DNA from: Serendipita indica DSM 11827
Taxonomy: Eukaryota; Basidiomycota; Agaricomycetes; Sebacinales; Serendipitaceae
Length of the DNA: 64,000 bases
Reading direction: 5' to 3'
Assembly (NCBI GenBank): GCA_910890315.1
Contig: CAJVGD010000001.1
Span: forward strand, 2,356,001 to 2,420,000
Each line of letters opens with the position of its first letter. Within the stretch, counting starts at the first letter, position 1. Positions 41,679-62,749 of this stretch are shown here, piece after piece. Position numbers and translations under genes: made by a program. The notes below the pieces were generated by a model. The model was not told the DNA's origin. It was given only the letters and a program-made list of their open reading frames with translations, and searched no databases.

Positions 41679-41740
41679 ATCGGGATGTACGCATATTCCC
41701 AGGAAACTCCCACCCTCTCTAGCCTCCAAGGAACTGTGCG

Positions 41741-43139
41741 ATGCCGTTGGCGGAGGTGATTTTCCAAGCTCTTGACATTTCACGGTACTTTGCCTGTGAG
41801 TAATACCTCTGAGATTACTAGGTTGTTCATGATCCCAATCTTTTATCCAATCCCATAGTCGCAGCCGTCACTATTGCCATCTATGACTGGATACTGCTGC
41901 TAAAGGAGGAAGTCAAATTGTTAGGAGGTGCACGGATGTCCCTAGGGAAGATTTTATTCTATCTGGTACGTATATCGTCGTGAGATGGTTCTGTCTTATA
42001 TTCCTGGTAGACGAGAGTGACGACCATCCCCGGTCTCATCCATGGTGTATACAGTCAGTATTCTCCCATCTTCTCCCGCATTCTAAAGCGATAATTTTGT
42101 AGCGCTTTCCCCACTGAGACCTCGTTTAAACCAAAACGTGAGTTTCTCAACCCGGTGTGACTTTATGCTTACGACGAGGTTTGCAGTAGTACGCGATTCA
42201 CATCATTATATCCACAAGTTGACCTATCGATTCCAGCTGCTTCATATTCCTTTGGATATCGCCAATTCAGTGCCTTTTGTCCATCTTCCTCAGCTACTGT
42301 AAGCCGTCTTTCAACTCTGCTGTACGACTGGAGTGTTTAATATTCCTAGGGCTCCTTACTCTCCGCGTGGTTGCTCTATACCAACGGAACCGAATAGCCA
42401 AGATTATCCTCTACTTCAGCCTCATCTCTTGCTACTTGATCGCATTCGGCGCCCTTCTCAGCTGTTTGCACGAATTGTCAAGTAAATGACTCTCATCTCG
42501 GACGCAGTTCAACCTCTAATCTATTTCAGAGAATGCTACCTACGTCCCGCTCGTCGACGTTTGCATGCCGGCAGGCCTCAATTCGCGCATCTCAATCGTC
42601 TTCGAAGCCCCATTGGTCTTTGAAATCATCATGTTCGCTGCGTTAATCTATCGTGCCGTGACCGACCTCAAGTTCCAAGGCTCCTTGACAATGCTGCCGC
42701 TCTTTCGTGTTCTCTATCGAGGTAAAGTTGGTCGACGTGTCGATATGGGTTCTGATATCTGTTCTAGATGGCATTTTGTTCTTTGTCATCATGACCTCGA
42801 CGAGAATATGGAATATTTACAAGGTATCTCTCTCCTGGTCATCCCGTAAATGCTCTGCTAATTCCTGCTTAGTATTCAGAGAGGCCGGTATACGAGGCAC
42901 TTGAGGGGTTATAGTGAGTCGTCTGCGTACTTCTGCGCGAATATCTTCTTACGGGCCATTGTAGCATTATGTGGAGCATTGTTTGTGTTCTCTCGTGTCG
43001 GGTCTATATCAATATCGTCTATGCGGCACGAACTCCACAGCAACACGGCTCCAGATCACGATGGGACTCTATGCAAGACAATGGATATTCCCTCTGGGAG
43101 CTCACGCCACGCAAAAGATCTGATTCTACATATATTTAG
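41741..43139 (+). CDS. DUF6533 multi-pass membrane protein, copy 1, with a 2-nt micro-exon
   Basis: Exons are 41741-41795, 41859-41965, 42011-42053, 42103-42137, 42187-42188, 42237-42298, 42350-42481, 42530-42721, 42768-42823, 42873-42913 and 42965-43139. They sum to 900 nt, 299 residues plus stop. The N-terminus (ALDISRYFA-FAAVTIAIYDWILLL, then MSLGKILFYL) is the DUF6533 domain of Agaricomycete seven-helix proteins. Further helices include CFIFLWISPIQCLLSIFL, LLTLRVVALYQRN, IILYFSLISCYLIAFG and IVFEAPLVFEIIMFAALI. The short tail contains NGYSLWELTPRKRSD. The function of the family is unknown; a membrane receptor-like role is only a guess. Exon 5 is the two bases TA between CAG and GTACGC. 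Without it the frame is lost. Confidence 0.85.
42187..42188 (+). other. 2-nt micro-exon, copy 1
   Basis: TA flanked by GCAG and GTACGC, with introns 42138-42186 and 42189-42236. It completes Tyr (TA + C) between QN and CFIFLW. Confidence 0.7.
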
Positions 43140-44108
43140 TAAAGATATCCGCGTGGTCGCGCTCCAAGCCCAGATTGGACTTGCGATTTGATACTTTGGT
43201 ATCGACGGTGGTTTGTTGCTTGTTCGATCCCTTCTCGTAGATGGGCGACAGCAAGTTGTCCTCGACGTTCTCCATCTCTTTGACCCTCTATCGCCGTCAA
43301 GAACGTTGATACCTGTGGAACTATGTATAATGCATTTGATTAGAATTGCTAATTGATGTCAGTATTGTGTGGGATAATACCCCAGTACGCGGTTCTGCAC
43401 TTGAACGGGGTATACAGTGGTTATTTGACTTGACCTCGACCACTGTGGGGATTCTTGATCCTCGACGCCCGGATATTCTATGGTGGACCGAATTGGTCAC
43501 AAACCTACACAATATACCTTGAGGACCAGCACTTCTGACAACCGCTCGAGGCGCTCCGTTTGCGGGTGGAAGATGGGGACACGCAGCCTACGCTTTGTAT
43601 TGACTAGAATCACTCAAATATAGGTCGTGATAAACCCTTTTTGGGTCCACGAATCATCGATTCTCCTGGATATAGGATGGCGCGCACCGAACTGTTTTGG
43701 CAGTCAGGAGATCTTCAATCATTTTGTCAGTTACAGAGCCGGTTAGCTACGTTGTTCCATTAAAGATACAGCCAGAGTTCTGGACTCGCGTCAGCCCACG
43801 TCGCGACCGTGTTTTGCTAAGTGGCTATTCATATCAGCCCCAGTGCGAACTTCTCTTCATTGTTCACTTCCAATGCACGTGTCTGATATATCATCTAGCC
43901 ATAACCTTGTCACCGTCCGTGACCTGATGGGCTCGAAACGGATAAAGCAACTCAGGACTCCAACCGCGCCGTTGTCCCACGCTTCGGCGGTAAACCCGTG
44001 CAAATCGATGGATAGAAATCGTGTATTCGATATTTCTTGGTACTGCTACCCAATCCGCCGCCATTGTCCACAACCGAGGACGCCTTTCAGTACCGGAGGA
44101 GTTTGTGA
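43140..44108. other. Intergenic part of the DUF6533 tandem unit
   Basis: No gene seen. A stretch at about 43537-43607 (GAGGCGCTCCGTTTGCGGGTGG) has a counterpart at about 46006-46075, 2.47 kb away, showing that the tandem unit included upstream non-coding DNA. Confidence 0.45.
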
Positions 44109-44139
44109 GGCGCGCCTTTGTGGAGGGAATATAATCTGC
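44109..44139 (+). promoter_or_regulatory. Core promoter block, DUF6533 copy 2
   Basis: GGCGCGCCTTTGTGGAGG followed by AATATAATCTGC, about 60 nt before the ATG at 44200; nearly identical to the block of copy 1. Confidence 0.6.
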
Positions 44140-44199
44140 GCCAATGTGAAGCTGACCTCGCTAGAAGTCTCGAGTTTCTTCCCACCCAGGGGTCGCGCG

Positions 44200-45594
44200 A
44201 TGCAGTTGGCCGCGGTGGTTCAAGCCCTCAACCTTGCGCGATACTTTGCCTGTAGGTATCAAATTTGAGACATCTGCACTGCTAACTACCTCGGCGGTCT
44301 CTCTCTAACTGCTCAGTCGCAGCCACCACCATCGCTGTTTACGACTGGATACTCCTTCTGGGAAAGGAAGTCGAGTTAGTAGGGAATGCAAGAATGTCGA
44401 TTGGGAAGGCCCTATTCTATTTGGTACGCGTATCTATATGAAGTGAACCTTTTCTCATTTTCCCCGAGGTCAGAATAACCACCATTCCCGGGCTACTTGT
44501 GGTGCATACAGTCAGTATGATCGATTGGATGCTTTAAAAGTATTCTGAGACTGCAATCGTGTAGCTCTCTCCCCCCTGAGGGCTCGTTTGAACCAAGACG
44601 TGCGTAGCTCTTCGGCCTTTATGAACTTTTAATGACTGCAATGATGCCAGTTGTACGAATTTCTTAGTTCTATGCTCACTGCATAGCCTAACATTTGCAG
44701 CTGTAACATGTTCCTTTGGATATCGCCGATTCTTTGCCTTTTGTCCATTTTCATCAGCTATTGTGAGTCGCTGTCGCAATTCTATTGACATACAATAATT
44801 GCATCCTTAGGGCTTCTTACTATTCGGGTTGTCGTACTCTACCCGTGGAGCCCATTGGTGAAGATTGTCCTCTACATCAGTCTCGGCGCGTGCTATTTGA
44901 CCTCATTTGGGGTCCTCCTCAGCTGTTTGCATGGCTTGTCAAGTATAAATCATCCCTTGTACTCCATCTAGCATCTAACTTGTTCCAGGGGATGCCACTT
45001 ACGTTCAACTGGTCGACCTCTGTATGCCGACAGGACTCAGTTCACGCATCTCAATCGTCTTCGAAGCACCATTGGTTTTCGAGGGCCTTATGTTTGCTGC
45101 ATTGATCTACCGGGCCGCAGTTGACCTCCAGTCTCGGGGCTCCTTAACAATGCTGCCGCTTTTCCGGGTTCTCTATCGAGGTAAGGCTGGTCGACCTGTC
45201 GATGTGGGTGCCCATATCTGTTCTAGATGGTATTTTATTCTTCGTCATCATGACCTCAACGAGAATCTGGAACATTTACAAGGTATTTCTCTCTTTGATA
45301 TCCTTGGGTACTAAGCAGACTTCACACAGTATGTAGACCGACCGATATACGAAGCACTTGAAGGCCTGTAGTGAGTTGTTCGCTACCGCTCCCAGATTCC
45401 TTTTGACGGATCCTCTTAGCATTATGTGGAGTATAGTCTCCGTTCTCTCCTGTAGGATCTACATCAACATCATCTGCGCTGTACAGAAGCCATTGCAAGC
45501 AGGCTCAAGGTCGCAATCCAGCTCTCGGCGAGAACAAAGTTACTCTCTCTGGGAATTCAAACCACCCAGGATGTCTAATTCCGTACAGGTTTAA
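44200..45594 (+). CDS. DUF6533 multi-pass membrane protein, copy 2, with a 2-nt micro-exon
   Basis: The start MQLAAVVQALNLARYFA joins FAATTIAVYDWILLL across a short intron. Exon 4 (44565-44599) is 35 nt, as in the other copies. The micro-exon TT (44651-44652) and the next exon from 44701 give QD-F-CNMFLWISPILC. Later exons encode LLTIRVVVLYPWSPLVK, ATYVQLVDLCMPTGLSS, ISIVFEAPLVFEGLMF and WSIVSVLSCRIYINIICA. The tail is REQSYSLWEFKPPRMSNSV, ending at 45594. Gene structure and length match copy 1 and I saw no break. A membrane protein of unknown function; the family is typically expanded in Agaricomycetes. Confidence 0.85.
44651..44652 (+). other. 2-nt micro-exon, copy 2
   Basis: TT flanked by CCAG and GTACGA. 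It completes Phe (TT + C). Flanking introns are 44600-44650 and 44653-44700. Confidence 0.7.
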
Positions 45595-46458
45595 CGGAGC
45601 ATCTTTAAATCCTCTGCTCTCGGGCATAGGTCCAGCTGTCGGATTCAATACTTTGAAGTCTGCCAGTGAACGGACTACACCCAATTATGAAGATATGTAT
45701 ACTATTTCTGACTGAAAGTGATTGGATGGCATTCGAATTGTACGGAGCGATAAGTCGGCTCATGGAAATTCGAGTCGTTTCTGGAAAGGAGCCATGTACT
45801 TAGATGATATACTTTAATTGAGATCGACCTCGTGATTAAGTACCTCTCTTCTGTCAAAATGCCGCTGATATGACCTGGTGGGCTACCCAAGTGATACGCA
45901 ATAATTTGGACCCGAACACTACGCAGGGGAAATCATTCTCGGTGCTTGAGGAGGCACTCACTCGCGAATTCTCACGGCATGGCTTCAGGACAGGCATGTT
46001 GGACAAGTTCTGAAGGCGCTCCGTTGCCGGATGGAGGCTGGCCGACCAATCTGTACTTCGCATTGACGTGAAGTACTACAATTCTGGTCCTGATAAGCTA
46101 TGTTCATCCGTGAGTAATCAAACCTCCTGTGGAGACAGCGCGCTGAGGTCGACTATGCAGCCTTCTTATTACTCACGAGCTATAGCGGCTTCTCACGATT
46201 GAAGTACTTTTTTCCACCGCTTATCTGATCTAGCACGGACCATTAACTACTTGCGGCTGGCGGGGCTATATGGATAGTCTCCGGTCGCGACGGCATACCC
46301 TCACCGCTGTCCCACATTTCAGACGCACAACTAAGGGGGTGTGCACTCAGTGACAGATACCTGCTGTGTATTCAAGCTGTTGTATCAATCAATATCCTAA
46401 CGACCAGTCCCTAAGGGAGGTGTTTGGTACCGAGGCAGCGCGTCAACTGCACATTCAC
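45595..46458. other. Intergenic part of the DUF6533 tandem unit
   Basis: No gene seen. It contains the counterpart of the 43537-43607 block. Confidence 0.45.
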
Positions 46459-46477
46459 GGAGGGATATAATCCGAGC
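46459..46477 (+). promoter_or_regulatory. Core promoter block, DUF6533 copy 3
   Basis: GGAGGGATATAATCCGAG about 60 nt before the ATG at 46537. The GC-rich palindrome of copies 1 and 2 is degenerate here (GCAGCGCGTC at about 46436). Confidence 0.55.
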
Positions 46478-46536
46478 CGACGTAGAGATGTGCTCCCTAG
46501 AAGTTTCGACCTGCCTTCCCCATCCAGAACCGCCCG

Positions 46537-47921
46537 ATGCAGTTGGAGGTGATCCTTCAAGCTCTCAACGTTTCACGGTATTTTGCATGTAGGTGGTGAC
46601 TCTGGGACTACCTTTTGCTGACCAAATTGTCCAGTCGTCGCAACCACCATTGCTATCTATGATTGGATGCTCCTTCTGAGGACGGAGGTCGAATTGCTAG
46701 GAAGTTCGAGGATGTCAATTGGGAAGGTACTATACTATTTGGTATGTATAAATTGGTCGGATAAACCTTTCTCATAACTCACATAGACCAGAATAACGAC
46801 CATCCCCGGTCTAGTCTACGGTGCTTACAGTCAGTATTTCCTCATCAACTCCTCTGCAGCAGTTTCTAAATGCTGTCTGGTAGCTCTTTCCCCCCTGAGA
46901 TCTCGTTTGAGCCAAGAAGTGAGTGAATCCTAAGCTGTTACTACCGCGTCTCAACTGCAACCAAATTCCCAGTAGTACGCAGTTTGTAGCACTCATCCAC
47001 GGGATGACTTATCGATCTCAGTTGTAACAAGTTTCTTTGGATATCACCGATTTATTGCCTTGTGTCCATTTTTATCAGCTACTGTGAGTCGTCATTTCAA
47101 ACGTCCTGTAGAAGATTGTATTGACTATTCTTAGGGCTTCTTACCATTCGCGTCGTTGTACTCTACCAGCGTAGCTTATTAGTGAAGACTATTCTTTACC
47201 TCACCCTCGGCACCTGCTATTTGATCGCATTTGGAGTTCTTCTCAGCTGTTTGAATGAAATATCCAGTAACTATCTATGTATTGCTCCTGACATCCTCTT
47301 ACGTGTTCCAGAGAATACGATCTACATTCAACTGGTCGACATTTGCGTGCCAGCAGGACTCAACTCTCGCGCCTCAATTGTCTTTGAAGCCCCACTGGTC
47401 TTTGAGGGCGTCATGTTCGGCGCACTGATCTATCGGGCTTCGGTTGACCTCAAGTCTCAGGGGTCGTTGGCAATGCTACCGCTTTTGCGTGTCCTCTATC
47501 GAGGCAAGTTCTGTCGAACCCTCGGTATCACTGCTAATCTACGGCTAGATGGATTTTTGTTCTTCGTCATAATGACTGCGGCTAGAATATGGAACATCTA
47601 CAAGGTCCTCTTATCCTGAAGATTGCCCGAATTCTTAGTTGATTCCTATTTAGTATGTGAACCGACCGATATACGAGGCACTTGAAGGCTTGTAGTAAGT
47701 CCTACCGGTTTTTGAAACCTTCTTACGGTGTTTGTAGCATTATGTGGGCCATTGTTTCTATTCTATCCTGTAGAATTTACGTCAACATTGTCTGCGCGGT
47801 GTGGAAGCCGCTGCCACTGGCCACAAGATCCCCATTCGCTTCTTCACGATATTCCTCTGGGAGCTCACACCATCCCAAAGACTTGAACCCACGCAATTTT
47901 GACGCGTCATTCCTATCATAA
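46537..47921 (+). CDS. DUF6533 multi-pass membrane protein, copy 3, frame-shifted tail
   Basis: The start MQLEVILQALNVSRYFA joins FVATTIAIYDWMLLL. Exon 4 (46884-46918) is 35 nt. Micro-exon TA (46973-46974) plus T gives QE-Y-CNKFLWISPIYC. The following helices match copies 1 and 2 (LLTIRVVVLYQRSLLVK, ISCYLIAF-like TCYLIAFGVLLSC, ASIVFEAPLVFEGVMF, WAIVSILSCRIYVNIVCA). In the tail the copy 1 sequence TATTCCCTCTGGGAGCTC reads TATTCCTCTGGGAGCTC, one base shorter. The conserved YSLWEL is therefore lost and the protein ends GSSHHPKDLNPRNFD ... at 47921. All membrane segments precede the shift, so the product could still fold. The change may be real or a base-call error. Confidence 0.8.
46973..46974 (+). 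other. 2-nt micro-exon, copy 3
   Basis: TA flanked by CCCAG and GTACGC. It completes Tyr (TA + T). The next intron is 46975-47021 (47 nt). Confidence 0.7.
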
Positions 47922-48894
47922 TACTTTCACTCTTGATAGGTTGGGTCCGCGACCCAAAGTACTCGCGAGAACGGACTTTTCTATAAAGCACTGTATAACG
48001 TGTTCTAATGGCGTCATACTATGGTTTTTGGGCTGTAAGAAGTAATGCTTGGATCATGTACGGTCCCGACAGAGACGAAGGGGCCATGTATCCTGGCCAA
48101 CGGAGGCCTGTGTGGTAAAGCTTCTGTTATGTATATACTATATATTGCATTATTGTCAGTCTACACCACAAGATGGGACATAATTCATTGGCAACTCCAT
48201 CTTGTGAAGGGTCATCAAGACGTTTGCCTCGAAACGCCTATTCTAGAGTGATGCGCACGCGAGAAACAAATGTCGTTGAAGTGCATATTACTCGAGACTA
48301 GTAGATGGTGGTGACCTCGCTCGAACCCGACTCCCTTCAAAGTCGCTCATACACTTGCACACAAAATCAACCAAACGATCAGAGACTCGTTTAGCATGGC
48401 CTGAGAGCGACACCCTTGGCGTAATTATCCCAAGGGACATCCCTCGCCCATCGGTAGCGGACATAGGCTCTGCCAATCCAGTACACACGTTCCTATCGAC
48501 ACCTAGGCCGCTTTTTCTCTGGTCTCGTTGATCCCTCTTCCATCACATTTCCTGTGAAATTGGTGCGCATAGCCTCTTTAGGGATATGTACTGCTATCAT
48601 CGCTCACACGCTCAGCAACGAACCGCAATACGAGCGCTTGTAGGTACCGGCGATACGATCTAGCCAGGCGTCGCTTTGCCTCTTTAATGTTCAATATCTG
48701 CTGGGCTGAAATGGCTCAATCCCCGGTCACGGTATCTGTTCCAACCTCGCTGCCATCCCACGCTTGTGAGACGAACTAGGAGAAGCTCCTCACCAGGGTG
48801 AATGGGAACCGTAGTTGCAGCCTATGGTGATATTGATACTTAGTTCACGCGCCTTGTCAACGGGCGAGGTCTATGGTACCGGATGCGACGCCAA
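47922..48894. other. Intergenic part of the DUF6533 tandem unit
   Basis: No gene seen. Confidence 0.4.
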
Positions 48895-48922
48895 GCGCGC
48901 CTCTTTGGCAAGATATAAACCG
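48895..48922 (+). promoter_or_regulatory. Core promoter block, DUF6533 copy 4
   Basis: GCGCGCCTCTTTGGCAAGAT followed by ATAAACCGC, about 50 nt before the ATG at 48974. Confidence 0.55.
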
Positions 48923-48973
48923 CGCATCAAGATTGAGCCAGGTGCTCTGGACGACTTGGGCCGTTTGATCCCG

Positions 48974-50443
48974 ATGCAGCTGACAGTGGTGCTCCAAGCT
49001 CTCAATATTTCGCGGTACTTTGCGTGTAAGTAATAATCTAAGAGAATTCTACTGCTAAAATTCTCGATAAAATCCTCAATTTCCTAGTCGCAGGAGCTAC
49101 CATTGCCATCTATGACTGGATCCTCCTTCTAAAGGAGGAGGTCGAATTATTAGGAGGCACCCGACCTTCGCTTGGGAAAATATTATTCTATTTGGTACAT
49201 ATATTGCCATTAGAAAAGCCCACCTAACGTCTACCAGGCGAGGATAACAACAATCCCCGGTCTAATATATGCTTCATACAGTGAGTGACATGCTGTATTC
49301 TCGCAATTACATCATCTGATCGCAACACCCCAGCTCTCTCATTACTCAGACCTCATCTAAATCAAAACGTGGGTGAACTTTGTGCCAACAGTTGAGAAAT
49401 CTACTTACGATGGGAAATCAGTAGTACAGGCTTCACCGCTATCTCAATGGTCTGCTGACTTCTGGATCTTAGTTGCGTCACATTCCTTTGGTTGTCGCCA
49501 ATCCAATGCCTTTCATCAATCTTCATCAGCTACTGTCAGTCCTTTGCTGCTGTTTAGAATTCGAATGACATCTTTCGTTCAGGGCTCCTTACCCTCCGAG
49601 TAATCGTTCTTTATCAACGGAGCCCACTCGTCAAGAGCATCCTTTACTTCAGCCTCGGTGCATGCTACCTGACCGCGCTCGGTGTCCTCATTAGCTGCCA
49701 ATATAATCTATCACGTATGGCTCTGTCCTCCGCCCTTTCCCGATCTCTAACGCCACTCGTAGAAATGAACACTTACGTCGGATTGGTAGACATATGCGTC
49801 CCCGCAGAGCTCAGTTCGCGCATACAAGTAGTTTTCGAAGCCCCGTTAGTCTTCGAGGGAATCATGTTCTCCACGCTGATCTATCGGGCGTGGGCTGATT
49901 TGAAATCCCGTGGCTCGATGGGAATGCTCCCGCTACTTCGCGTACTCTACCGAGGTATGTTCGCTCATAGTCAGATTTGGGAGCTTACTTTATTCTAGAT
50001 GGTATACTATTCTTCATTGTAATGACTGCGACCAGAATCTGGAACATTTACAAGGTAGGCCCATCTTATACTCGTACATGCGCTTGTCTAATTTTCGACT
50101 AGTACGCAAAACGGCCGATATACGAGACACTCGAAGGACCATAGTGAGATCATCCTCTTTCGCCAGAAATATTTTGCTGAAGGGATCCTATAGCATCATG
50201 TGGAGCATCGTTTCGGTCCTCTCCTGCAGAATTTACCTCAACATCGTCCGTGCTGCACAGAACCTACAGCAAGGAACACGTCCGTCGCAGTGGAGTTCTA
50301 TGCGAGAGCAAGAGTATTCTCTATGGGAATTCACATCGTTCAGGCGGTCGGATTCGGTGCGTAGCCAGAAGGATATAAGTTTGCGACCTGATCTCCCTAA
50401 AGAGTATTCAAGTTCGAGAAGAGGGCACATCAAGCGATGGTAG
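48974..50443 (+). CDS. DUF6533 multi-pass membrane protein, copy 4, with a 2-nt micro-exon
   Basis: The start MQLTVVLQALNISRYFA joins FAGATIAIYDWILLL and PSLGKILFYL. Exon 3 gives ARITTIPGLIYASY. Exon 4 (49334-49368) is 35 nt, and micro-exon TA (49422-49423) plus T gives QN-Y-CVTFLWLSPIQC. Later exons encode LLTLRVIVLYQRSPLVK, GACYLTALGVLISC, IQVVFEAPLVFEGIMF and WSIVSVLSCRIYLNIVRA. The tail keeps REQEYSLWEF and then extends to SSSRRGHIKRW at 50443, making this the longest tail of the five. No break seen. Function unknown. Confidence 0.85.
49422..49423 (+). other. 2-nt micro-exon, copy 4
   Basis: TA flanked by TCAG and GTACAG. It completes Tyr (TA + T). The next intron is 49424-49472 (49 nt). 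Confidence 0.7.
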
Positions 50444-50644
50444 AACCATAGATACATGAACGCAGGCGAGAGGATCAGAATGGACAATGCAGATTCCCAA
50501 ATTTGTATACAAATATGTGTATTAGCATTGGTAATTGACAATAGTAAATTGTATAAAATTGGCCTGTGATCGTGAAAACTGGAGATTGGCAAACAGTTTT
50601 CGACTCTTAACTCCCGACGTCGTCCGTCCCTCATCGCCAGAAGC

Positions 50645-52543
50645 ATGAGCAACGTGTACCCTGAAGTAGACTGGACAGAGTGGAATCTAGACGGCGAGCT
50701 CCCTGAGGAGCAGATCCATACGAACCAACCGACTACCCACCACCCGCAATCACACTCACCGCAGTCGTCGGGTCAGGGTGTATATCTCAATCATATCTCT
50801 CCGTGGAGCTATAATTCGCCCTCACCAGGACCCTTGATAACCCCGTCTCAGCATGCAACTCCACGACTATCACCGCAGCCTTCTACAATCGGCGGCTCAC
50901 CGCGCAGCGAATGGGCTCCATCTCCTGGACTCATGATAACGACTTCACAAGCTACAAGCCCGGCGTTTTCATCGATTGACATACACTTCTCCAAGCCAGA
51001 ATCAAATAAAGCCCGCCTGAAGTTTGATCAGAGCCGCCCTCGAAGGAGCCGAAGCACGTCTGTCTCGTCTACGAAACGCATTGCCCCACTGTCAACCCTA
51101 CACGAACGCCCCGCAACTTTCATCAACCCTGCAGATTTATGGATTCTTTCTGGCCGAACCATCCCTAATTTATCACGAGAGATACTCGCTGGAATATTCA
51201 TACATTATGCGCATGGATTAGCCTCTTACAGTAAGTCTGTTGATTACTCTCGAATTCTTCGGTCAGGCCGTTACCGCCTCGAAACTTTGCTCTTGGTCTG
51301 TCGCCATTGGCACACTATCGCGACTCAGACGTCGGGATTATGGGAGGGATTCTACATTTTCATAGACGATCTCAGAGACTTCGAGACTTGGAGACGCCTA
51401 GCGAGAGTTCGAATTACTCGCTTAAATTCACATCCAGACTTGAGCATATCTATAGTCCTTGGTCCACCGGTGTATCGAGGATTGTCTCTTAGGCTATACT
51501 CGGTGCTCTCGGAGGCCAACTTGGCGCCAATGGGCCAGGAGAAGGCGCACCAGGCGGTCTCATGCTTACGGGAACTCGCAGATCTAGTCAGCGTACTTGC
51601 TGGTATTGGGAATACTTTGGCAAGCGTCTGGAGAAAGTTCTATTTAAGTTTCCCCCTTGAACATAGTGAACTAGTTTCACAGCTGTCTGCGTCGCAATTG
51701 TTAGACGCGGAAAAGTTCTTGGACCAAATACTCGGCCGAGAAATGAAAGCTTTGGAGCATATCGAGCTCCGAGGTCTGAGTTGGCTTCGCCCTGAGCGAA
51801 CGACAGATCCATCCTCCAAACTGCCGTGGGCCCTGAACTGCGCTATGGGATCCTTGAGAGTGATTCATATGACAAATTGCTCTCTTCCGTGCACTCCTGA
51901 CATACGCTCTGCACAAGAATTGCGTTTCGACGAGTGTACTTTTTGGAACGACGTGCCCTTCAGCCCGAGGAATATTGCGGCAATGCCCTTAAACTCAGAT
52001 AATGCCCCTGATTGGATCAGGATACTTGGCTTGAAACCTATCATACATCTTTCCCACTTGCATACACTGGCAATCGGTCCACTACATGCTGTAATCAAAC
52101 TCAACGTTCCGTCCCTTCGCGTGCTTGAGGTCATGTACAATTCTTATAACTACATCTCTTCACTCTTCTATTTATCAGGCATTATAGGGGAAAATATTGA
52201 AGAGCTGCTCTTCTCACCGCGGATCAGATCACCTTTACCCACCGACACTCACGAAGTACCAGGATTAGAGGAAGTTAAAGTGAAGATTGTATCATTCTTC
52301 AGGAGAAGCCGCAGTATAAAGACAATACGAGGCCCCGATGACCTCCTTAATCTGGTGCTTGCTTCCGTGTATGAACTGCGTCTATCGTCACCAAATATGG
52401 ATACTATCTTCGAGGGATTGACACTCAGCACTAACTATGGCCATCTGAGTCCGCTCCTGCGCCTTGGTGGTCACGAGGACGCTACAAGACTTCAGTGGAT
52501 TGCTCGGCAAACCTTTGGCAAGGAGCTCTTCAATTGGTCGTAA
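50645..52543 (+). CDS. F-box-like protein with Ser/Pro repeat N-terminus
   Basis: A single exon of 632 codons starting MSNVYPEVDWTEWNLDG. The first 130 residues are Ser/Pro-rich and contain WSYNSPSPGPLITPSQ and EWAPSPGLMITTSQATSP, the same repeat type seen many times in the F-box genes at 58-62 kb. A basic patch (RPRRSRSTSVSSTKR) follows. The F-box-like region is about residues 175-245 (PNLSREILAGIFIHYAHG ... LETLLLVCRHWHTIA). The rest has LRR-like beta/alpha spacing (LEHIELRGLSWL, LHTLAIGPL, LRVLEVMYNS). Such proteins are usually substrate adaptors of SCF ubiquitin ligases. The substrate is unknown. It lies between DUF6533 copies 4 and 5. Confidence 0.8.
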   Translation: MSNVYPEVDWTEWNLDGELPEEQIHTNQPTTHHPQSHSPQSSGQGVYLNHISPWSYNSPSPGPLITPSQHATPRLSPQPSTIGGSPRSEWAPSPGLMITTSQATSPAFSSIDIHFSKPESNKARLKFDQSRPRRSRSTSVSSTKRIAPLSTLHERPATFINPADLWILSGRTIPNLSREILAGIFIHYAHGLASYSKSVDYSRILRSGRYRLETLLLVCRHWHTIATQTSGLWEGFYIFIDDLRDFETWRRLARVRITRLNSHPDLSISIVLGPPVYRGLSLRLYSVLSEANLAPMGQEKAHQAVSCLRELADLVSVLAGIGNTLASVWRKFYLSFPLEHSELVSQLSASQLLDAEKFLDQILGREMKALEHIELRGLSWLRPERTTDPSSKLPWALNCAMGSLRVIHMTNCSLPCTPDIRSAQELRFDECTFWNDVPFSPRNIAAMPLNSDNAPDWIRILGLKPIIHLSHLHTLAIGPLHAVIKLNVPSLRVLEVMYNSYNYISSLFYLSGIIGENIEELLFSPRIRSPLPTDTHEVPGLEEVKVKIVSFFRRSRSIKTIRGPDDLLNLVLASVYELRLSSPNMDTIFEGLTLSTNYGHLSPLLRLGGHEDATRLQWIARQTFGKELFNWS

Positions 52544-53653
52544 TAATATCTTTGATATACTGCCTTTGCATTTAATATCAGATATTTCAAAACACCATCG
52601 TATCTCTGTCTCGAACATCCCAGTGTTCAGTGTGCGAGGTATACAGCGTTTCAGGGCTTTCCTTCGATTCTCGGTGCTTACGGAGTAGACTCGGCCAATT
52701 ACGATAGTTCCCTTTGTAACTAGGTGGATTTATTGATGCGTGACGTAGATGACTGGAGCCTTACTGGGCCTACCTCTGTGCTCACGCATCCTGGGGGGAT
52801 CACCTAATATATAACGCTGTGGGTTTCCACATATAACTCACCTCTTGTCTGATAGATCTGACCATCTTATTTGTCGCTGTAAACTCTTTCCGCGTCTGAA
52901 ATACATAAAGGTAGATCCCCCATCTTTGCCAAGTATTTGCCCTAAATGAATTTACAGTGACCTGTTCAACTCTGATTCTGGAGGTATTCGAAGGTATATA
53001 GTACTTCTCGTGCCGAATCTATCTGAATATCGTTCCTGCAGCCAAGACTCCTTGAGTGACAGAGCTCAGCGGTACGACGGGTATCCCAGAAATCTTGGTG
53101 CGGGCGTTTAAGCCGTCGAATGATTATCAAACGGTGTGCCTCTGAACTCACTAGGCCGTTGGTTGATGTCATAGACATCTTAGGATTCAGTCATGGCTCT
53201 CCCAGGCGGCTTATATATCATTTATAGTCATTAGAAACGCATTTAGGTGCATATATTTGGAATTAGTAGAGCCCGTCGCCATCTTCGTTTCCCATCAACA
53301 CGTATTTTGCCTGAAGCAGCTCTAGTATCGTTTACGAAACATATAGAGTTCTCTATGGTGCATAATTAACACGTTGACGCGTGTGAAGCTTGGGCCATAC
53401 TACCCCAATACGACTATTTCTGCGTAGCACCTGATGAAAGCGCGCATAGTGTCGTCATTGCGTTCAATGCGACGCATAACACCCATCAATGGGATCCATT
53501 CACTTCAGCGCTGCTAGCCGCAGGGATCCCACGGCCCCGAAGCGAAGGGTCCCAGGCTTGAATATCAGCATAGACTCGCTCATCATTTTTTTCTCTTCCG
53601 CACCCTTCTTCTTCTCTCCCGCACCCTATTCGTTTATCTCGTTCTCCTCGGAG
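52544..53653. other. Intergenic
   Basis: No supported gene. The TATA block seen before DUF6533 copies 1 to 4 is not present upstream of copy 5. Confidence 0.4.
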
Positions 53654-55218
53654 ATGCTAGGAGAACGTGCCATTTCCAGCGGGTTTCTGCAAGAGATTCT
53701 CAAAATAGCCGTCGCGCTGAATCTCACGCGGTATTTCACCTGTACGCGTCCAGAGTATCGTGCGGAGATGAATAACGAGTAACATTTGTCATGTATAGTT
53801 GCGTCTACGACGATAGCTGTCTATGATTGGGTGTTGGTGGTGCCAGAGGAAGTTCGCTACTTGGGCTCTGCACGATTCTCGCTCGGAAAGATTTTGTATT
53901 ATGTGGCGAGTTGTGGTTATACGGGTGCTATTCAATGCTGATACCTTTGTAGTCACGACTTTTGACGGTACCGTCGCTGATATTCGCAAGCTACAGTGGG
54001 TTTCTTACCGATGACGACCAGTTCAGGCGGTCTAACCAAATCTAAATAGTACTCTCTGGTGCAAGAGCACGCTTGAGCGAAACAGTGAGTCGTCCATTTC
54101 GTTCTATGTTGTTGCCAATAAAGGGCGGATCTGTTTCTAGATGTAAGCCGGTCTAGTCTCAAACACAGTTTGGATGTCTAAAAGAATGCAATAGATGCCA
54201 ATGGTTCGCATGGTCGACTCCAATCACCGTTCTCTTGGCCGTATTCGTCAGTTACTGTACGTCCGTTGATCTCTCAATGCCTTGTCGCTGATACCAGAGG
54301 ACAGGGATATTGACACTTCGCGTCATCGTACTCTACGAACGACACAAGATTGTCAAAGCGCTCTTGTACTTTACGCTCTTTGCGAGCTACGGGACCGCTC
54401 TCGGAGTCCAGGTCAGCTCCATGTACAAACCCTTGCGTAAGTTTTGAGTGCAATCGAGGTTGGGTGCTCACTAGAGTGAACAGGAGAACAGGAGTTGTAC
54501 AATGCGCCGACGGACATGTGCGTCGTAGTGAGCAAGAGTCAGCGGACCCAAATCATCTTCGAGGTCCCGTTCGTATTCGAGGTGACGCTCTTCTTGTTGC
54601 TTCTTTATCGAGGGTGGCATGACTACAAGGCGTCGTGGGGGCTCTCGACGATTCCCGTCATTCGTATCCTCTATCGCGGTGAGTCTTGTCTTTATGGGTA
54701 AGGACTGGTACTCAAGGTTATAGATGCGGTCATCTTCTTTATCGTGACTACGGCTGTGCGAATATGGAACATCTATAATGTACGTTGCTTGCCTCGGTGG
54801 TGGTGACGGCTAACGCGTGCCTGCAGTGGGTAGCAAGGCCGGTATACGAAGTGTTTCAAGGAGCCTAGTGCGTCTGATTCCTCTTGAGTCTTATGTATTC
54901 ATGAGCCGCTGTTAGTGTCATCGCAAGCATCGTCAACGTCCTAGCGTGTCGGATATACCTCAACATTCTCTGCGCCGCGCAGAGTCCTCGTGTCCAAGAG
55001 CTCACTCAAGGACTTGGGGGTACCGTCGGAGACGAAGAAGTCACCCTACAGTCGATACGGACGGTTCCTGGTCAGCGGTCGGTACGTTGTGTCACTTTGA
55101 ATCGCTACTAGATGGCGTCATATTGATCGACTTTTTGCAGAGAGACCGGCGTGTTTTACGAGATACGTACGGCACGGGGTCTACTTTCGACGACGACTAT
55201 CACGGTTCGTCGCGGTGA
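53654..55218 (+). CDS. DUF6533 multi-pass membrane protein, copy 5 (diverged), with a 2-nt micro-exon and a probable GC-AG intron
   Basis: The start MLGERAISSGFLQEILK leads to VALNLTRYFT-FASTTIAVYDWVLVV. After GKILYYV the exon ends at GTG, followed by GCGAGT. Only a GC donor here keeps the conserved next exon in frame (SRLLTVPSLIFASY, compare TRVTTIPGLIHGVY). Exon 4 (54050-54084) is 35 nt. Micro-exon AT (54141-54142) plus A gives ET-I-CQWFAWSTPITV. Later exons give WILTLRVIVLYERHKI, IIFEVPFVFEVTLFLLLL and NVLACRIYLNILCAAQ. The last exon encodes RDRRVLRDTYGTGSTF and ends at 55218. It is well diverged from copies 1 to 4, yet it keeps the micro-exon architecture, so that structure predates the recent tandem duplications. 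Confidence 0.75.
54141..54142 (+). other. 2-nt micro-exon, copy 5
   Basis: AT flanked by TCTAG and GTAAGC. It completes Ile (AT + A). Flanking introns are 54085-54140 and 54143-54194. Confidence 0.65.
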
Positions 55219-56214
55219 TTAGGAATTCTTCGCTTGCTATTATGACAGATCAACGTGCATTGCGGTAGAGCTATAACTATACCCCTCATCCTGCTGGATG
55301 CGTGTGACCACCAGCTGGCTTGACTCGCAACTATTAGAAGAAGTGGAATGTAGAAAAACCCAAGATTCCAAAGAGAATAACAGTAGCCTCGCGTGTTTGC
55401 AGTATTCTGAGAAATAGCGCAATCCCACGTGCAAATGTCGCTTTCAGGCTTTTATCGGAGAAGAAGGATCGCCGGACCAATGAAATGTGCTTGATCTATC
55501 CTTTATAGTGACGATCTTTGGTTGCTTCTGGTCCTGTCGCGGAATGGGTAGGCCACCCGACAACTAGTGGCGGACCTGGGACGCGAGGATGTGAAAATAT
55601 TGTGTGCTTACGTGGTAGTTTCTCGGTGATTTGGGGAGAGGACGGGATGCGCGAATCCGGACCTGTATATTTACGTATATGTTCATAAGCGCTCTTTGCC
55701 TAGGGCTGGAATAGAACGATTGCATCGCCATGATTAGCGACGACTTCTGTACTTTTTGTTTGTGCATAACGATAAGGTCCTGGCATCGCCTCGTTGAGAT
55801 TCTTGGCAGAAGAGTTGATGGGGGGGTGAAGACAGGAAACGTTGTAGACGCTCGTTGACAGCATGCGGATGGGTGGCTGATCTAGGCGTTGTGTATTCTT
55901 ATCTGCGGACCGGCCTCGAGTATAAAGGCATGTCATCCACTCACTCTTCGGCCTTTGCATGTCTGCCCGTCTCTGCTGACAATCCGCGTTATAATCCCAG
56001 AGTCGTTGACGGCCATTAGCTCGTGGATATCTGCAGTTCTCCCACATCTTCGGCCATTGTCCTCTGCCACTCCCGGTTCTACTTTGTTTGGTACGTTTGC
56101 CGCTTTCGACTCTTGGCCTCCCCCACCCGCCGCCCTTCCGCCCTTCACGAGGGTCATTCCACTGTCGTTTACAACTTGTTGCCATATACCCCAACAACAA
56201 AATCACCTTGAATA
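55219..56214. promoter_or_regulatory. Intergenic; TATA box at 55920-55927 upstream of the GH88 gene
   Basis: GTATAAAGG at about 55920 lies 290 nt before the ATG at 56215. The intervening sequence is pyrimidine-rich and reads as a leader. A frame at 55889-56215 has no domain and I did not accept it. Confidence 0.4.
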
Positions 56215-57971
56215 ATGACTCTGCTCCGACTTTTTGTTGTCTGTGTCCTGAGTACACTCGTACTGTGCTCAGAGATGCACGACACCCATCCACTCCACAA
56301 GAAACACGCTAACCCGTCTCAGCCGCACAAGCACATTGCCCGCAATCACCTCCACAGACTCTCCAAGCGCAAAAAGATGCTCGCGTCTGTCCTGCCATAC
56401 TCGCCAGCCTCTCCACTCATCACCAGTCCACTCATCTTTGACAAGTATGCCAAATCCTCTGCTCACTATCAGTCAAACGTCTTCCCACACCTCACCGCAC
56501 CCTCGGGCGCATGGGAGATGGAGACGGCAGATTGGTGGACATCCGGTTTCTATCCGGGCACACTCTACCTATTACACGAACGCAAGACGTTTTGCACATC
56601 GTCCTCCGCCGCCGTCGGAAGAAACGGCGCAGACGTCGACTGGTTAACGCGCGCTCGTCAGTGGAGGTTTGTCGCTTTTTCTTCCCGGAGTTGCTTATCC
56701 CCGCTATTCCAAAACATTCCGACTGCACATTCACACGCGCCCACTCTCCGTTTCCATGAATACTGATTCCGGCTTCTCGATAGCAATGGCCTCGGACCGC
56801 TCCAAAAGAAAAACACGGTTGGCCACGACACGGGATTCCTCGCATACCCATACGTCTCCGAACTCGAAATGTAATGTTGAGATACCAAACCGGGAAAAGT
56901 ATTGCTCACAGAGTCCAATAGCAATCCATCGAATCAAACAGCTCTCGAGGGCGTGAGAGCGTTTGCACAACTCCTCGCAGACCGCTTCTCTTCTGTCGTC
57001 GGCTGCACACGCAGCTGGGAAAGTAACGCACCCAATTTTTTGGTACGCTTTTGTTGGTCTGGCACAGCCTTGAAGGGAAAGGGTGGCTGGGCTTGGCATT
57101 TCAGATTTTTATTGACGGACGGCGCGATAGGTTATTATGGATAATATGATGAACCTGGAGCTTCTATACCTGGCCGGCAGACTGTTCAACTTGCCGCATT
57201 ACTTTGACATTGCCAATGCGCACGCGACGACAACGTCAAAGCATCACCTCCGACCGGATGGTACGAGTCCTTCCCTCCAAGATGTCCGGTTCTATTCGCT
57301 CACTCAGCACACAGCGTCGTCTTACCACGTCGTCAACTACGACGAGAACACGGGTGCCGTCACGAGACGATATACCGCCCAGGGTTTCGCAGACTGGTCG
57401 ACGTGGTCTCGTGGACAAGCGTGGGGGCTCTATGGGTTCGCATCCATGTACAATTTGACACAAAATGCGCTCTATCTCCATACGGCGCGCGCAATGGGTC
57501 AACGATGGTTGACGCGTCTTGCAGAGGATCCGTCTGGTATCCCGAAATGGTCCGTCTCTCTCTCTTTCCCACACAGTACTTTCGTTGTCTTACTCGTTGT
57601 GGTGTAGGGACTTTGACGCGCCAGAGCCCGCGTCCAAGGACACGTCTGCCGCTGCCATTGCGTCCACTGGGTTCCTGTACCTCTACCACGCCGAACTCTC
57701 GACTTCAAACTACACTGGTGCCGCGTTTTGGCGTGACAGTGCACTCACTGTCCTCTCGCGCACGGCCGACCGGTATTTCCAGCAAAATCCGCAATGGGAC
57801 GCCATTCTCTCCAATGGCACGTCGAATCATCCAAGCGGCAAGGTCGATTCGGGTATCGTCTATGGTGTGTTTCTCCTTGTCGGTCATACCTAGCTCATGC
57901 GGTTTGTAGGCGATTATTATTTTGTCAAGGCCGGGAATATGCTCCTCAACTTGGGTCTAGCGAGCTGCTGA
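56215..57971 (+). CDS. Glycoside hydrolase family 88 (unsaturated glucuronyl hydrolase), possibly frame-broken
   Basis: A signal peptide (MTLLRLFVVCVLSTLVLC) indicates secretion. Exons are 56215-56666, 56784-56870, about 56900-57042, 57131-57260, 57315-57549, 57608-57864 and 57910-57971. GH88 landmarks in order are ADWWTSGFYPGTLYLLHE, VGHDTGFLAYPYV, VIMDNMMNLELLYLAG, RPDASSYHVVNYD, TWSRGQAWGLYGFASM and DSGIVYGDYYFVKAGNMLL. The family removes unsaturated uronic acid residues left by polysaccharide lyases. Between exons 2 and 3 (56865-56900) the reading frame meets a stop (CTC GAA ATG TAA), and the only apparent intron there would be 29 nt. This is either a two-indel lesion making a pseudogene, a sequence error, or an exceptionally short intron. 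Everything else is intact. Confidence 0.75.
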
Positions 57972-60405: not shown

Positions 60406-60691
60406 ACCCAGATACACAAATGAAATGACTACGAGTACACTTCAATATAGTAACGGATCTGAACTTTAACATCCAGGCCTCACATCCTCTGGTCAAATTT
60501 CAGGCTACTCTCCTCGATGGTCTTCCAACCCTCGCTTACTCGTAACTCAGCATCGTTGGATGAAATATTAGTGTATTAGTGAGTTGTATCACGCACCAAT
60601 AGGGAAATCTCTGAAAATGACGCGTAATGTAAACGCGGTCTTTCAATTCTTACTACATGAATGACAGGGATTTGATCGGTATACGCTATTG
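60406..60691. other. Duplicated flank between F-box copies
   Basis: The left part resembles the 5' flank of the next F-box copy (about 62750-62880). The right part (about 60545-60660: ATCGTTGGATGAA ... GCACCAATAGG) resembles 58040-58140 and 63580-63690. The repeat units therefore abut here. Confidence 0.6.
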
Positions 60692-62749
60692 TTAGAGGGG
60701 AATATGACAGGGAAGTGAAACACGAAAGTAATTAAGCGCAAGATCATTGAGCTGCTCTGCACTCTCGGTGCCAGTCAATGACACCTCCAGGTTCTCCTCG
60801 CGTTCGCGTAGAGTGAGACCTTTTGGTTTATCGACAAATGAAGGAGGATGTGCATGCAGAAGGTTGAGAATGCCCAAAAGGAGAACTCTCGGGCCATCAA
60901 TATATCTAATATTATTCGCCTTCGCAAAGAGTGTGGTAATTCCGTGCTCAAGGCCGTATATTGTGGATTTAGCGGGCCGTCGGAGAAGAGGATGCCTCTC
61001 ATGTGACATAATGAAGGTTTTCAAGTTCCGTAGGGAGAGGTCAGAGATAAAGAGGAGTACTGTAGATACGTTGGAGACCCCGATTAGCTCTAGAGTATGC
61101 AAGGAAGGGAGGGAAAGAGGAATAATGTGCTTAATGAGCGGACCGATTGTGAGTGTTTGCAGGTATGGCCAGATTTGCATTCCTGAGTGGCTATTTGAGT
61201 CACTTCTCTGGCAGATTGGCCGCCACTGTCGACTTGGTGGGTCCCAGTAGTGACAGTCTATCAGGTGGAGCTCGTTGGAGTCAACTAGATTTGGAATATG
61301 TGGGAGAAAGCAATTCCGTAAACGAATTATTTTGAGTGAACTCCTTAGTCCGAATATATATGCAATTCGGCGGTAGTCGTAGCCCCTGGGTAAAATCCAT
61401 CCAACATTTTCCAGCTCAAGCGATTGGAGGATTTGCAGATTAAAGTGGAATATGACACTGAGGTTCATGCTCGCTATCACTCTTGCATAGTCATCGAGTT
61501 CCTCAATGTGTAGGACAAAATTGGGTGGCATGGAGAGGCGAAAGCCGTTATACCTACAATGAGGGCTGCTTTTATGGATCAGCGAAGCCAAGGTAGCTAT
61601 ATCCCCAAGATTGGGTAGTACCATCGCATTCTTGAGTTGACGGTGACCGTTCGAGCTAATGAGTCGCCGATCTTGGATACTGACATCTGTTAGAATCGTG
61701 CTCGAACGGAATATCTTTTAATCCTCCCTATCCACTTTATAACGTCACGTTTGTCAATAAGCGTAATGTAGACCTTTGCCCATATACTTTCGTGGTGTTC
61801 GGCTACATTTTTCCAGTGCTTGCAGACTTGGAGTAGTGTTTCAAGGTTTGCAAATGGAGAACGACTTGCGTCTCGCTTTAGGCTGTCCGCATAGACGTCG
61901 AATATTCTCTGAAGAATGTTTGGTGGAAGGTTACTAGCGTGTTGTGAGTAGGTATGGGGATCAAGTGAAGGCCAGGTGATTCCATTAACCCATTCATCAC
62001 GGCTAGCTAGTGCCGACGAGCTGGCGTCCGGGTTAATGACGTTATCTTCAAGAGAACGCTGTAGAGATCCCACTGGACCAAGTGGAGGGAATGAATATTC
62101 GTCAATTACTGTCAAGCTTGGGAGAGGCTTGAAGACCCGTCGACGAAGCCGGTCACCCAGGGAACTACGTGCGTGGGTCAGTCGGCGGAGGGGATAATGG
62201 CGTGAGACGGTTAGGAGCAGCTTCGAGCGCATGGACCGATACTGCTGGAGATGCGTATTGGGACGTAGTTATCATCATTCCCGGCGATGCGCTCCAGTTG
62301 CTGTATGGAGACGCATTGACAGAACGAAGCAGTGTGTAGCGGAGACACCTGCTGGGATGTTGTGATCATGAGGCTAGGTGAGGCCGAGTAGTTACTCCAC
62401 GGCGAAGCGTGAGCGATATACGGAGAGGCGTTGACAGATGGCGTATGGTGTGGAGCCGACTGATGAAAATTTGTCCCTATGAGACCGGGGAAGCCCAGTA
62501 GTTGTTCCATAAGGGGTCCCGTGCGACATACGGGGAGGCGCCGTGTTCTACAAGCAGTTGCGAACCGAGAGGTGAGCGTCCTGGATCACTATCATGATTG
62601 AGCGAGTCCCTTGACCAGTAATCAGAATGATTGAATCCATTATGGTCGTAGATGCAAATGCAGCGATGAACGCACAAGCAAAGAGACGTCAAAATCTCAG
62701 AACCACTCACCTCCCCTGTATTATAGTTACAAGGACAACGAAATACCAT
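60692..62749 (-). pseudogene. F-box-like LRR gene, frame-disrupted copy
   Basis: Collinear with the intact gene at 58288-60405. The N-terminal repeats (YSASPSLMITTSQQVSP) are spread over two frames between 62749 and 62211. The F-box part (LPPNILQRIFDVYADSLKR ... LLQVCKHWKNVAE) is in the frame 62232-61690. The LRR part (LQSLELENVGW, LKIIRLRNCFLPHIPNL, LQTLTIGPLIKHIIPLSL) is at 61624-60692. At 61690 the intact copy reads CGATTTCTAACAGAT and this copy CGATTCTAACAGAT: loss of one T creates an immediate stop. Further changes lie near 62210 and 62500. At least three frame changes make it a pseudogene, though the C-terminal 310 codons remain open. Confidence 0.75.

What the first reader, a model, noticed from the sequence alone, without database searches (positions are those of the whole stretch)
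42103..54195. A 2-nucleotide micro-exon conserved in five DUF6533 membrane-protein genes
In all five copies a 35-nt exon ends in frame and the next obvious exon begins with one extra base before a conserved Cys codon, so two bases are missing. Between them each copy has an AG-NN-GT site: CAG-TA-GTACGC (42187), CAG-TT-GTACGA (44651), CAG-TA-GTACGC (46973), CAG-TA-GTACAG (49422) and TAG-AT-GTAAGC (54141). It is flanked by two introns of about 47-56 nt. Including the two bases restores the frame in every copy and gives Tyr, Phe, Tyr, Tyr and Ile before the Cys. The rest of the intron sequence has diverged, so its persistence in copy 5 argues for selection. Two-nt exons are extremely rare.
Basis: partly seen in the sequence, partly recalled or inferred. 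Interest (0 to 1): 0.9.

Follow-up and report, generated by a model that had tools for sequence, protein, structure and literature searches.

The report
Two-nucleotide exon in fungal membrane genes
Five related fungal genes each appear to carry an exon only two letters long, without which the protein cannot be read correctly; one-letter exons are already known in plants and another fungus, so this is a rare, well-supported new example that still needs an RNA test.

Summary
Five tandem DUF6533 (PF20151) genes each have a 35-nt exon 4 and an exon 6 that cannot be joined in frame, with AG-NN-GT between them at the stated coordinates. With the 2-nt exon all five read as 11-exon genes of 299-323 aa. 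The other 40 modelled introns are 43-65 nt; without the micro-exon one intron of 99-110 nt would remain, and it splits into 49-56 plus 47-52 nt. Among the internal exons, single introns, nested introns, retentions and direct joins enumerated, only the 2-nt exon restores the frame in all five. The one other path shared by more than two copies, skipping exon 4 through a donor 4 nt downstream, works in 4 of 5, needs a 179-195-nt intron and uses a weaker donor. Flanking introns have mostly lost similarity, yet the site persists. Weak points: no RNA, no relative outside the window, no branch-point enrichment, poor sites in copy 4, a 1-base loss in exon 3 of copy 2. One-nt exons are confirmed in Arabidopsis and Fusarium, so this is a new member of a known, very rare kind.

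The parts
41741..43139 (+). Copy 1, DUF6533 gene: 11 exons (41741-41795, 41859-41965, 42011-42053, 42103-42137, 42187-42188, 42237-42298, 42350-42481, 42530-42721, 42768-42823, 42873-42913, 42965-43139), 299 aa
   Evidence: gene model; PF20151 E=3.4e-12
42187..42188 (+). 2-nt exon TA, copy 1 (codon TAC, Tyr81)
44200..45594 (+). Copy 2, DUF6533 gene, 11 exons, 299 aa in the model with exon 3 at 44469-44514; exon 3 has lost one base and its splice sites are uncertain
   Evidence: PF20151 E=7.5e-12
44651..44652 (+). 2-nt exon TT, copy 2 (codon TTC, Phe81)
46537..47921 (+). Copy 3, DUF6533 gene, 11 exons, 301 aa; intron 8 has a GC donor
   Evidence: PF20151 E=2.5e-10
46973..46974 (+). 2-nt exon TA, copy 3 (codon TAT, Tyr80)
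48974..50443 (+). Copy 4, DUF6533 gene, 11 exons, 323 aa
   Evidence: PF20151 E=5.1e-10
49422..49423 (+). 2-nt exon TA, copy 4 (codon TAT, Tyr80); weakest splice sites of the five (acceptor 2.0 bits, donor 2.0 bits)
53654..55111 (+). Copy 5, diverged DUF6533 gene (43% identical to copy 1), 11 exons, 318 aa; intron 2 has a GC donor; exon 1 and the 3-prime end are less certain
   Evidence: PF20151 E=2.2e-11; identity
54141..54142 (+). 2-nt exon AT, copy 5 (codon ATA, Ile92)
42138..42186 (+). Intron 4, copy 1 (49 nt); equivalents 44600-44650, 46919-46972, 49369-49421, 54085-54140
42189..42236 (+). Intron 5, copy 1 (48 nt); equivalents 44653-44700, 46975-47021, 49424-49472, 54143-54194

Best explanation
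Each of the five DUF6533 membrane-protein genes has a constitutive 2-nt exon (exon 5) between two ordinary short introns of 47-56 nt. The spliceosome most likely recognises each intron separately (intron definition) and removes them one after the other. The acceptor AG of intron 4 and the donor GT of intron 5 lie only two bases apart, so, from general knowledge of splicing, the bases read by the two recognition complexes overlap and both introns cannot be handled at once. Whichever goes first, the two bases end up attached to exon 4 or exon 6 before the second step. I favour intron 4 first, because joining exon 4 slightly improves the donor of intron 5. The two bases complete the codon just before a Cys that all five proteins share, at about the start of the third hydrophobic helix. 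Shown: anatomy, frame, exclusion of the enumerated alternatives as an explanation for all five, purifying selection on both sides, persistence of the site while introns diverged. Inferred: that the exon is really spliced in, the order of splicing, and the role of the Cys.
For: Exact anatomy in 5 of 5 copies. Frame-restoring internal exons with flanks of at least 30 nt: the 2-nt exon is found in all five and is the only one in copies 2 and 3. Others exist in copy 1 (14 nt), copy 4 (5 nt and two of 8 nt, all with GC donors scoring -7.7 or below) and copy 5 (8, 23 and 32 nt; the 8 and 32 contain a stop); none lies at the same place in two copies, and all have a poorer site on at least one side. 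Single GT-AG introns of 38-130 nt that start in or after exon 4 and keep the frame: 5, 1, 1, 0 and 9 in copies 1-5, no pair of donor and acceptor positions shared. Direct exon 4-exon 6 join gives a premature stop in 5 of 5, one codon after the junction in copies 2 and 3; retention of intron 4, intron 5 or both gives a premature stop in 5 of 5. Nested-intron solutions within 12 nt of the exon ends: 0, 0, 11, 0 and 14, none shared. Intron length: 40 other modelled introns are 43-65 nt, median 48; the merged intron would be 99-110. The site is beyond chance and persists while intron 4 has lost detectable similarity in all 10 pairs. pN is below pS in all 10 pairs upstream, in exon 4, in exon 6 and downstream (last 45 alignment columns left out of the downstream part). 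The donor of intron 5 scores 0.3-1.1 bits higher once exon 4 is joined, in 5 of 5.
Against: No RNA evidence and no relative outside this window (searches found none in prokaryote and virus collections; no fungal collection was open to me). Branch-point-like motifs are not enriched in the ten flanking introns: CTRAY 2 of 10 against 1.8 in shuffles, although the 40 other introns are enriched (16 against 7.5); of five patterns only TNAC stands out, 8 of 10 against 5.2, P=0.047 uncorrected. Splice sites at the micro-exon are mediocre: the acceptor is the best internal AG in 2 of 5 copies (1, 5) and the lowest-scoring in copies 2 and 4; the donor is the best internal GT in 4 of 5 and third in copy 4, whose two sites score only 2.0 bits each. 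Skipping exon 4 by a +4 donor is in frame in 4 of 5 copies, and a GC-donor path 29 nt into intron 4 is in frame in copies 1 and 5. Copy 2 carries a 1-base loss in exon 3, and the model used for it itself takes the +4 donor. The Pfam model ends before the micro-exon residue, so it does not test it.
Confidence: 0.87

Rival explanations
1. Exon 4 and the micro-exon are both skipped: a donor 4 nt downstream of the exon 3 donor is joined to exon 6, giving a shorter in-frame protein (..YS[H/D/G]C..) as the main or an alternative product.
For: In frame without a stop in copies 1, 3, 4 and 5, and it is the only in-frame single-intron path found in copy 4. The copy 2 model itself uses the +4 donor, though joined to exon 4.
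Against: Intron would be 179-195 nt, about three to four times the others; the +4 donor scores 1.5, 4.8, 4.0, 1.3, -2.8 bits against 6.8, 6.8, 6.8, 8.3, 5.9 for the normal one. A GT at +5/+6 is part of the donor consensus, so its presence means little. Not in frame in copy 2 under the model used. Exon 4 keeps exactly 35 nt in 5 of 5 and pN<pS in all 10 pairs.
Confidence: 0.06
2. Each copy uses its own different single intron or small insertion, and the shared AG-NN-GT is a coincidence or relic.
For: In-frame single GT-AG alternatives exist in copies 1, 2, 3 and 5, and GC-donor or exon-skipping ones in all five.
Against: No GT-AG path that keeps exon 4 is shared between copies, and copy 4 has none. 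In the wider list, besides the +4 skip, three donor/acceptor positions coincide in copies 1 and 5 only (GC 29/0; skip 34/0 and 34/57, with a GC donor in copy 1 and GT in copy 5). All change the length of the protein next to the shared Cys, except one in copy 2 that uses a GC donor two bases into the intron, whereas the 2-nt exon gives equal spacing there in five of five.
Confidence: 0.03
3. Direct joining followed by +1 ribosomal frameshifting, or the genes are decaying pseudogenes with a 2-base lesion.
For: Copy 2 has a 1-base loss elsewhere.
Against: A direct join read without a shift stops one codon later in copies 2 and 3; downstream pN<pS in all 10 pairs; neither idea predicts AG-NN-GT in the right place in all five.
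Confidence: 0.03
4. The double intron is a stwintron (nested introns, inner removed first), leaving no exon between.
For: Stwintrons are known in filamentous Ascomycota, and splicing there follows intron definition (PMC6616335, passages read).
Against: Nested solutions keeping the frame within 12 nt of the exon ends: none in copies 1, 2, 4, and none shared between 3 and 5.
Confidence: 0.01

Closest known systems
One-nucleotide exon of Fusarium CYP621A P450 genes (Nelson & Syed 2026, PMC12940212; first two of three parts read)
   Same: Fungal nuclear gene; out-of-phase exons repaired by an ultra-small exon in an over-long intron; in a conserved motif; conserved in many related genes; missed by automatic annotation.
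   Different: 1 nt (AG-G-GT), Ascomycota, orthologues across species, confirmed by RNA reads. Here 2 nt, variable bases (TA/TT/AT), apparently Basidiomycota, tandem paralogues in one genome, no RNA evidence.
One-nucleotide exons of plant APC11 and VPS55 (PMC4674806, PMC8831610; passages read)
   Same: Ultra-small exon with no room for exon definition; intron definition proposed for APC11.
   Different: Plants, 333 nt before the APC11 exon, 1 nt, experimentally tested.
One-nucleotide exon between two group II introns of a fungal mitochondrial rnl gene (PMC12308204, passages read)
   Same: Two adjacent introns separated by a minimal exon in a fungus.
   Different: Mitochondrial group II introns, no spliceosome; RNA gene, 1 nt.
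Stwintrons of filamentous fungi (PMC6616335, passages read)
   Same: Adjacent short introns removed by consecutive reactions under intron definition.
   Different: Nested, with nothing left between them; no nested path fits all five copies here.
Micro-exons of Phanerochaete P450 genes (PMC1184071, passages read)
   Same: Basidiomycete multigene families with frequent introns of 45-55 bp and very small exons.
   Different: Shortest exon reported there is 6 bp.

Membership tests
Ultra-small (under 3 nt) constitutive exon | Flanked by AG and GT with two introns of normal size | tested here: met
   5 of 5; introns 47-56 nt against 43-65 in 40 others
Ultra-small (under 3 nt) constitutive exon | Needed to keep the reading frame; no enumerated alternative explains all copies | tested here: met
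   exon 4 skipping works in 4 of 5
Ultra-small (under 3 nt) constitutive exon | Conserved while surrounding intron sequence diverges | tested here: met
   five paralogues; intron 4 z<2 in 10 of 10 pairs, intron 5 residual similarity in 3 of 10
Ultra-small (under 3 nt) constitutive exon | Branch-point signal in both flanking introns | tested here: inconclusive
   no enrichment over shuffles for four of five patterns
Ultra-small (under 3 nt) constitutive exon | Present in mature mRNA | not testable with these tools
   no RNA data
DUF6533 (PF20151) membrane proteins | Match above Pfam's gathering score | tested here: met
   39.7-46.7 bits against 24.1 in 5 of 5
DUF6533 (PF20151) membrane proteins | Seven transmembrane helices | tested here: inconclusive
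   simple hydropathy finds 6, 7, 6, 7 and 7 peaks in copies 1-5; seven are predicted for the DUF6533 protein SNB1 (PMC10949477, passages read)
Stwintron | Inner intron interrupts a splice signal of an outer intron | tested here: not met
   no nested solution in copies 1, 2, 4 and none shared by 3 and 5, within 12 nt of the exon ends

The most novel reading that the evidence does not exclude
A constitutive 2-nt exon, to my searches the first in a basidiomycete gene family, has been carried through at least four duplications, so its splicing is robust: the two bases change within a hydrophobic or aromatic codon (TA, TT, AT) while AG and GTA around them are kept. The pair of introns would be an obligate stepwise unit in which the first removal places the two bases and completes the site for the second.
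Probability: 0.55. Interest if true: 0.6.

Novelty: new member of a known kind. Interest (0 to 1): 0.5.

Why it matters
If true, it adds to the single nuclear fungal case under 3 nt that my searches found (Fusarium, PMC12940212), and does so on five natural copies with different bases and site strengths, which makes the sequence needs of such an exon directly testable. It also means that gene models of this family made without the exon would be frameshifted or truncated near the third helix, so surveys of DUF6533 proteins, which include the fruiting-body protein SNB1 (PMC10949477), may mis-model some members.

Tried and rejected
Relatives elsewhere: two scans of genome contigs and two of viral contigs gave no relative; a profile search of solved structures gave none. 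No genome is held for the window, and no fungal genome, protein or RNA collection was available. Branch-point motifs did not help. Other DUF6533 copies in the window: tblastn at E 1e-3 printed no match outside 41700-55300. Metagenome scans were capped at zero and were not tried.

My first models were wrong and were corrected: copy 1 start off by one base (corrected in 13), copy 5 exon 7 acceptor (corrected in 14), copy 2 exon 3 (first model, alternative; the alternative was used in later counts).

Literature: searches for 2-nt, 2-bp or two-nucleotide exons, micro-exons in fungi and basidiomycetes, smallest or shortest exons with fungal, intron definition with microexon, and stwintron or micro-exon listed no paper that I could see to be about a 2-nt exon in a fungus. 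Searches matched more papers (12,811, 22 and 876) than the 20, 12 and 40 listed, and the library holds open-licence papers only. The source of the statement on 2-5 bp exons in Arabidopsis, Drosophila and humans was not read; I know it from PMC12940212. Passages without bearing were seen in PMC3990503, PMC4014442, PMC11121469 (a functional micro-exon in Trichoderma; its size was not seen), PMC12409088, PMC8042270, PMC8624252, PMC8208691 and PMC8955403.
Full report
What was checked. The finding describes five DUF6533 gene copies in which a 35-nt exon and the next exon cannot be joined in frame, with an AG-NN-GT site between them.

Gene models. I modelled each gene by hand and translated it. Each copy has 11 exons and 10 introns. 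With the 2-nt exon the proteins are 299, 299, 301, 323 and 318 aa. All five match Pfam PF20151 (DUF6533) above its gathering score, with E-values from 3.4e-12 to 5.1e-10. That model is only 46 positions long and its match ends before the micro-exon residue (81, 81, 80, 80 and 92), so it supports gene identity and not the micro-exon. DUF6533 is described as basidiomycete-specific (PMC10949477, passages read), so the window is probably from a basidiomycete; this is inference.

Intron lengths. The eight other introns of each gene, 40 in all, are 43-65 nt with a median of 48. Intron 4 is 49, 51, 54, 53 and 56 nt and intron 5 is 48, 48, 47, 49 and 52 nt. Without the micro-exon the single intron would be 99, 101, 103, 104 and 110 nt, outside the range of all 40. 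Among the 40, two have GC donors and one, in the copy 2 model, ends in GAG.

Alternatives. Internal exons with flanks of at least 30 nt and the right length to restore the frame were listed for each copy. The 2-nt exon is present in all five and is the only one in copies 2 and 3. The others are 14 nt in copy 1, 5 nt and two of 8 nt in copy 4 (all with very poor GC donors, one with a stop), and 8, 23 and 32 nt in copy 5 (the 8 and 32 with a stop); none lies at the same place in two copies. Single GT-AG introns of 38-130 nt that start in or after exon 4 and keep the frame number 5, 1, 1, 0 and 9 in copies 1 to 5, with no pair of donor and acceptor positions shared. A wider list with GC donors and exon 4 skipping gave 7, 10, 8, 1 and 24 further paths. 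One type is shared by more than two copies: a donor 4 nt downstream of the normal exon 3 donor joined to exon 6, in frame in copies 1, 3, 4 and 5. Three other positions coincide in copies 1 and 5 only (a GC donor 29 nt into intron 4 joined to exon 6; skips with a donor 34 nt into intron 3, GC in one copy and GT in the other, to two acceptors). One GC path in copy 2 puts Val in place of Phe and so keeps the spacing, but uses a GC two bases into the intron. The +4 skip is not in frame in copy 2 under the model used; by my arithmetic it would be under the other reading of its exon 3. It needs an intron of 179-195 nt and its donor scores below the normal one in 5 of 5. Direct joining of exon 4 to exon 6, and retention of intron 4, intron 5 or both, all give premature stops in 5 of 5. 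Nested introns (stwintrons), within 12 nt of the exon ends, give no solution in copies 1, 2 and 4 and none shared by 3 and 5.

Chance and conservation. Placing AGNNGT so that both introns are 43-65 nt happens in 4.0, 2.2, 5.6, 4.6 and 13.2% of shuffles for copies 1-5, and YAGNNGTR in 1.1, 0.5, 1.6, 1.0 and 2.2%. Real GT...AG stretches of the same lengths in the window give 182 of 2408 and 47 of 2408. The product over five copies is about 3e-7 and 2e-10 in the shuffle test, but the copies are related, so these products understate the chance. Treating copies 1-4 as one event and copy 5 as a second, the real-sequence rates give about 0.006 and 0.0004 by my arithmetic. Against simple shared descent, intron 4 cores have no detectable similarity in any of 10 pairs, and intron 5 cores only in three (1-3, 1-4, 3-4). 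Synonymous change is high even among copies 1-4 and saturated in many pairs. The encoded residue is Y, F, Y, Y and I, before a Cys present in all five (alignment).

Coding constraint. pN is below pS in all 10 pairs for the part before the micro-exon, for exon 4, for exon 6 and for the part after it, the last 45 alignment columns left out. This argues against pseudogenes and against a different frame in exon 4 or exon 6.

Results against or neutral. Branch-point-like motifs are not enriched in the ten flanking introns for four of five patterns, although they are in the 40 others; the fifth, TNAC, gives P=0.047 without correction. The acceptor before the micro-exon is the best internal AG in copies 1 and 5 only and the lowest-scoring in copies 2 and 4; the donor after it is the best internal GT in copies 1, 2, 3 and 5 and third in copy 4. 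Copy 4 has weak sites on both sides, 2.0 and 2.0 bits. Copy 2 has lost one base in exon 3, and either of two splice choices brings exon 4 back in frame, so copy 2 may be less sound than the others. No relative was found outside the window, and no RNA could be seen.

How it most likely works. From general knowledge of splicing, the donor complex reads about three exon bases, and here these overlap the acceptor AG of the previous intron. The two introns must therefore be removed one after the other, each recognised across its own short length (intron definition), as argued for the Arabidopsis 1-nt exon (PMC4674806, passages read) and as described for fungi with short introns (PMC6616335, passages read). 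Removing intron 4 first changes the base at -3 of the intron 5 donor and raises its score slightly in 5 of 5 copies (0.3, 0.3, 1.0, 0.3 and 1.1 bits). This is a weak hint for the order. The Cys after the micro-exon residue and the one in a later D-x-C motif are both present in all five proteins (alignment). From general knowledge of seven-helix receptors, a Cys at the start of helix 3 often pairs with one in the second outer loop. If so here, the exon lies next to a residue needed for folding. That is inference only; simple hydropathy gives 6 or 7 peaks, and SNB1, a DUF6533 protein, is predicted to have seven helices with the N-terminus outside, while its authors note that it does not fit the GPCR classes (PMC10949477, passages read).

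What is known. Single-nucleotide exons are reported with experimental support in Arabidopsis APC11 (PMC4674806), in plant APC11 and VPS55 (PMC8831610) and, with 18 RNA reads, in Fusarium CYP621A (PMC12940212); a 1-nt exon between two mitochondrial group II introns is described in another fungus (PMC12308204). The Fusarium paper used the same reasoning as here: out-of-phase exons, an intron more than twice the median length and a candidate site in all genes. [quoted passage not shown] The present case is therefore a new member of a known, very rare kind. My searches listed no 2-nt exon in a fungus; three of them showed only part of their matches, and the library covers open-licence papers only.

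Noticed in passing
44469-44514: Copy 2 exon 3 has lost one base against the other four copies. A GAG acceptor with a donor shifted by 4 nt, or a CAG acceptor 5 nt downstream, both bring exon 4 back in frame; the first keeps most of the helix 2 sequence.
   Followed up: partly
42054-42063, 46830-46839, 49281-49290, 53996-54005: A second GT 4 nt after the exon 3 donor would allow an in-frame product that skips exon 4 and the micro-exon in copies 1, 3, 4 and 5.
   Followed up: partly
47504-47548 and 53906-53952: GC donors (GCAAGT, GCGAGT) in intron 8 of copy 3 and intron 2 of copy 5.
   Followed up: no
2477-38877, both strands: Many ORFs end in a shared pattern, seen by eye, of the form C..C...H....H....(F/W).C..W, such as 10574-12127, 12541-13758, 15393-16181, 28795-29448 and 34943-35689, suggesting an expanded zinc-finger-like family. 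Five ORFs of this region were scanned (10574, 12541, 15393, 22894, 34943) and none passed a Pfam cut-off.
   Followed up: partly
50645-52543 (+), 58288-60417 (-), 60692-61624 (-): Long ORFs that look like F-box/leucine-rich proteins by eye (recalled likeness), one of them lying between DUF6533 copies 4 and 5; no Pfam match at E 0.01.
   Followed up: partly
57137-57607: ORF with a weak match to glycosyl hydrolase family 88 (E=2.5e-5, below Pfam's cut-off), perhaps an exon of a split gene.
   Followed up: no
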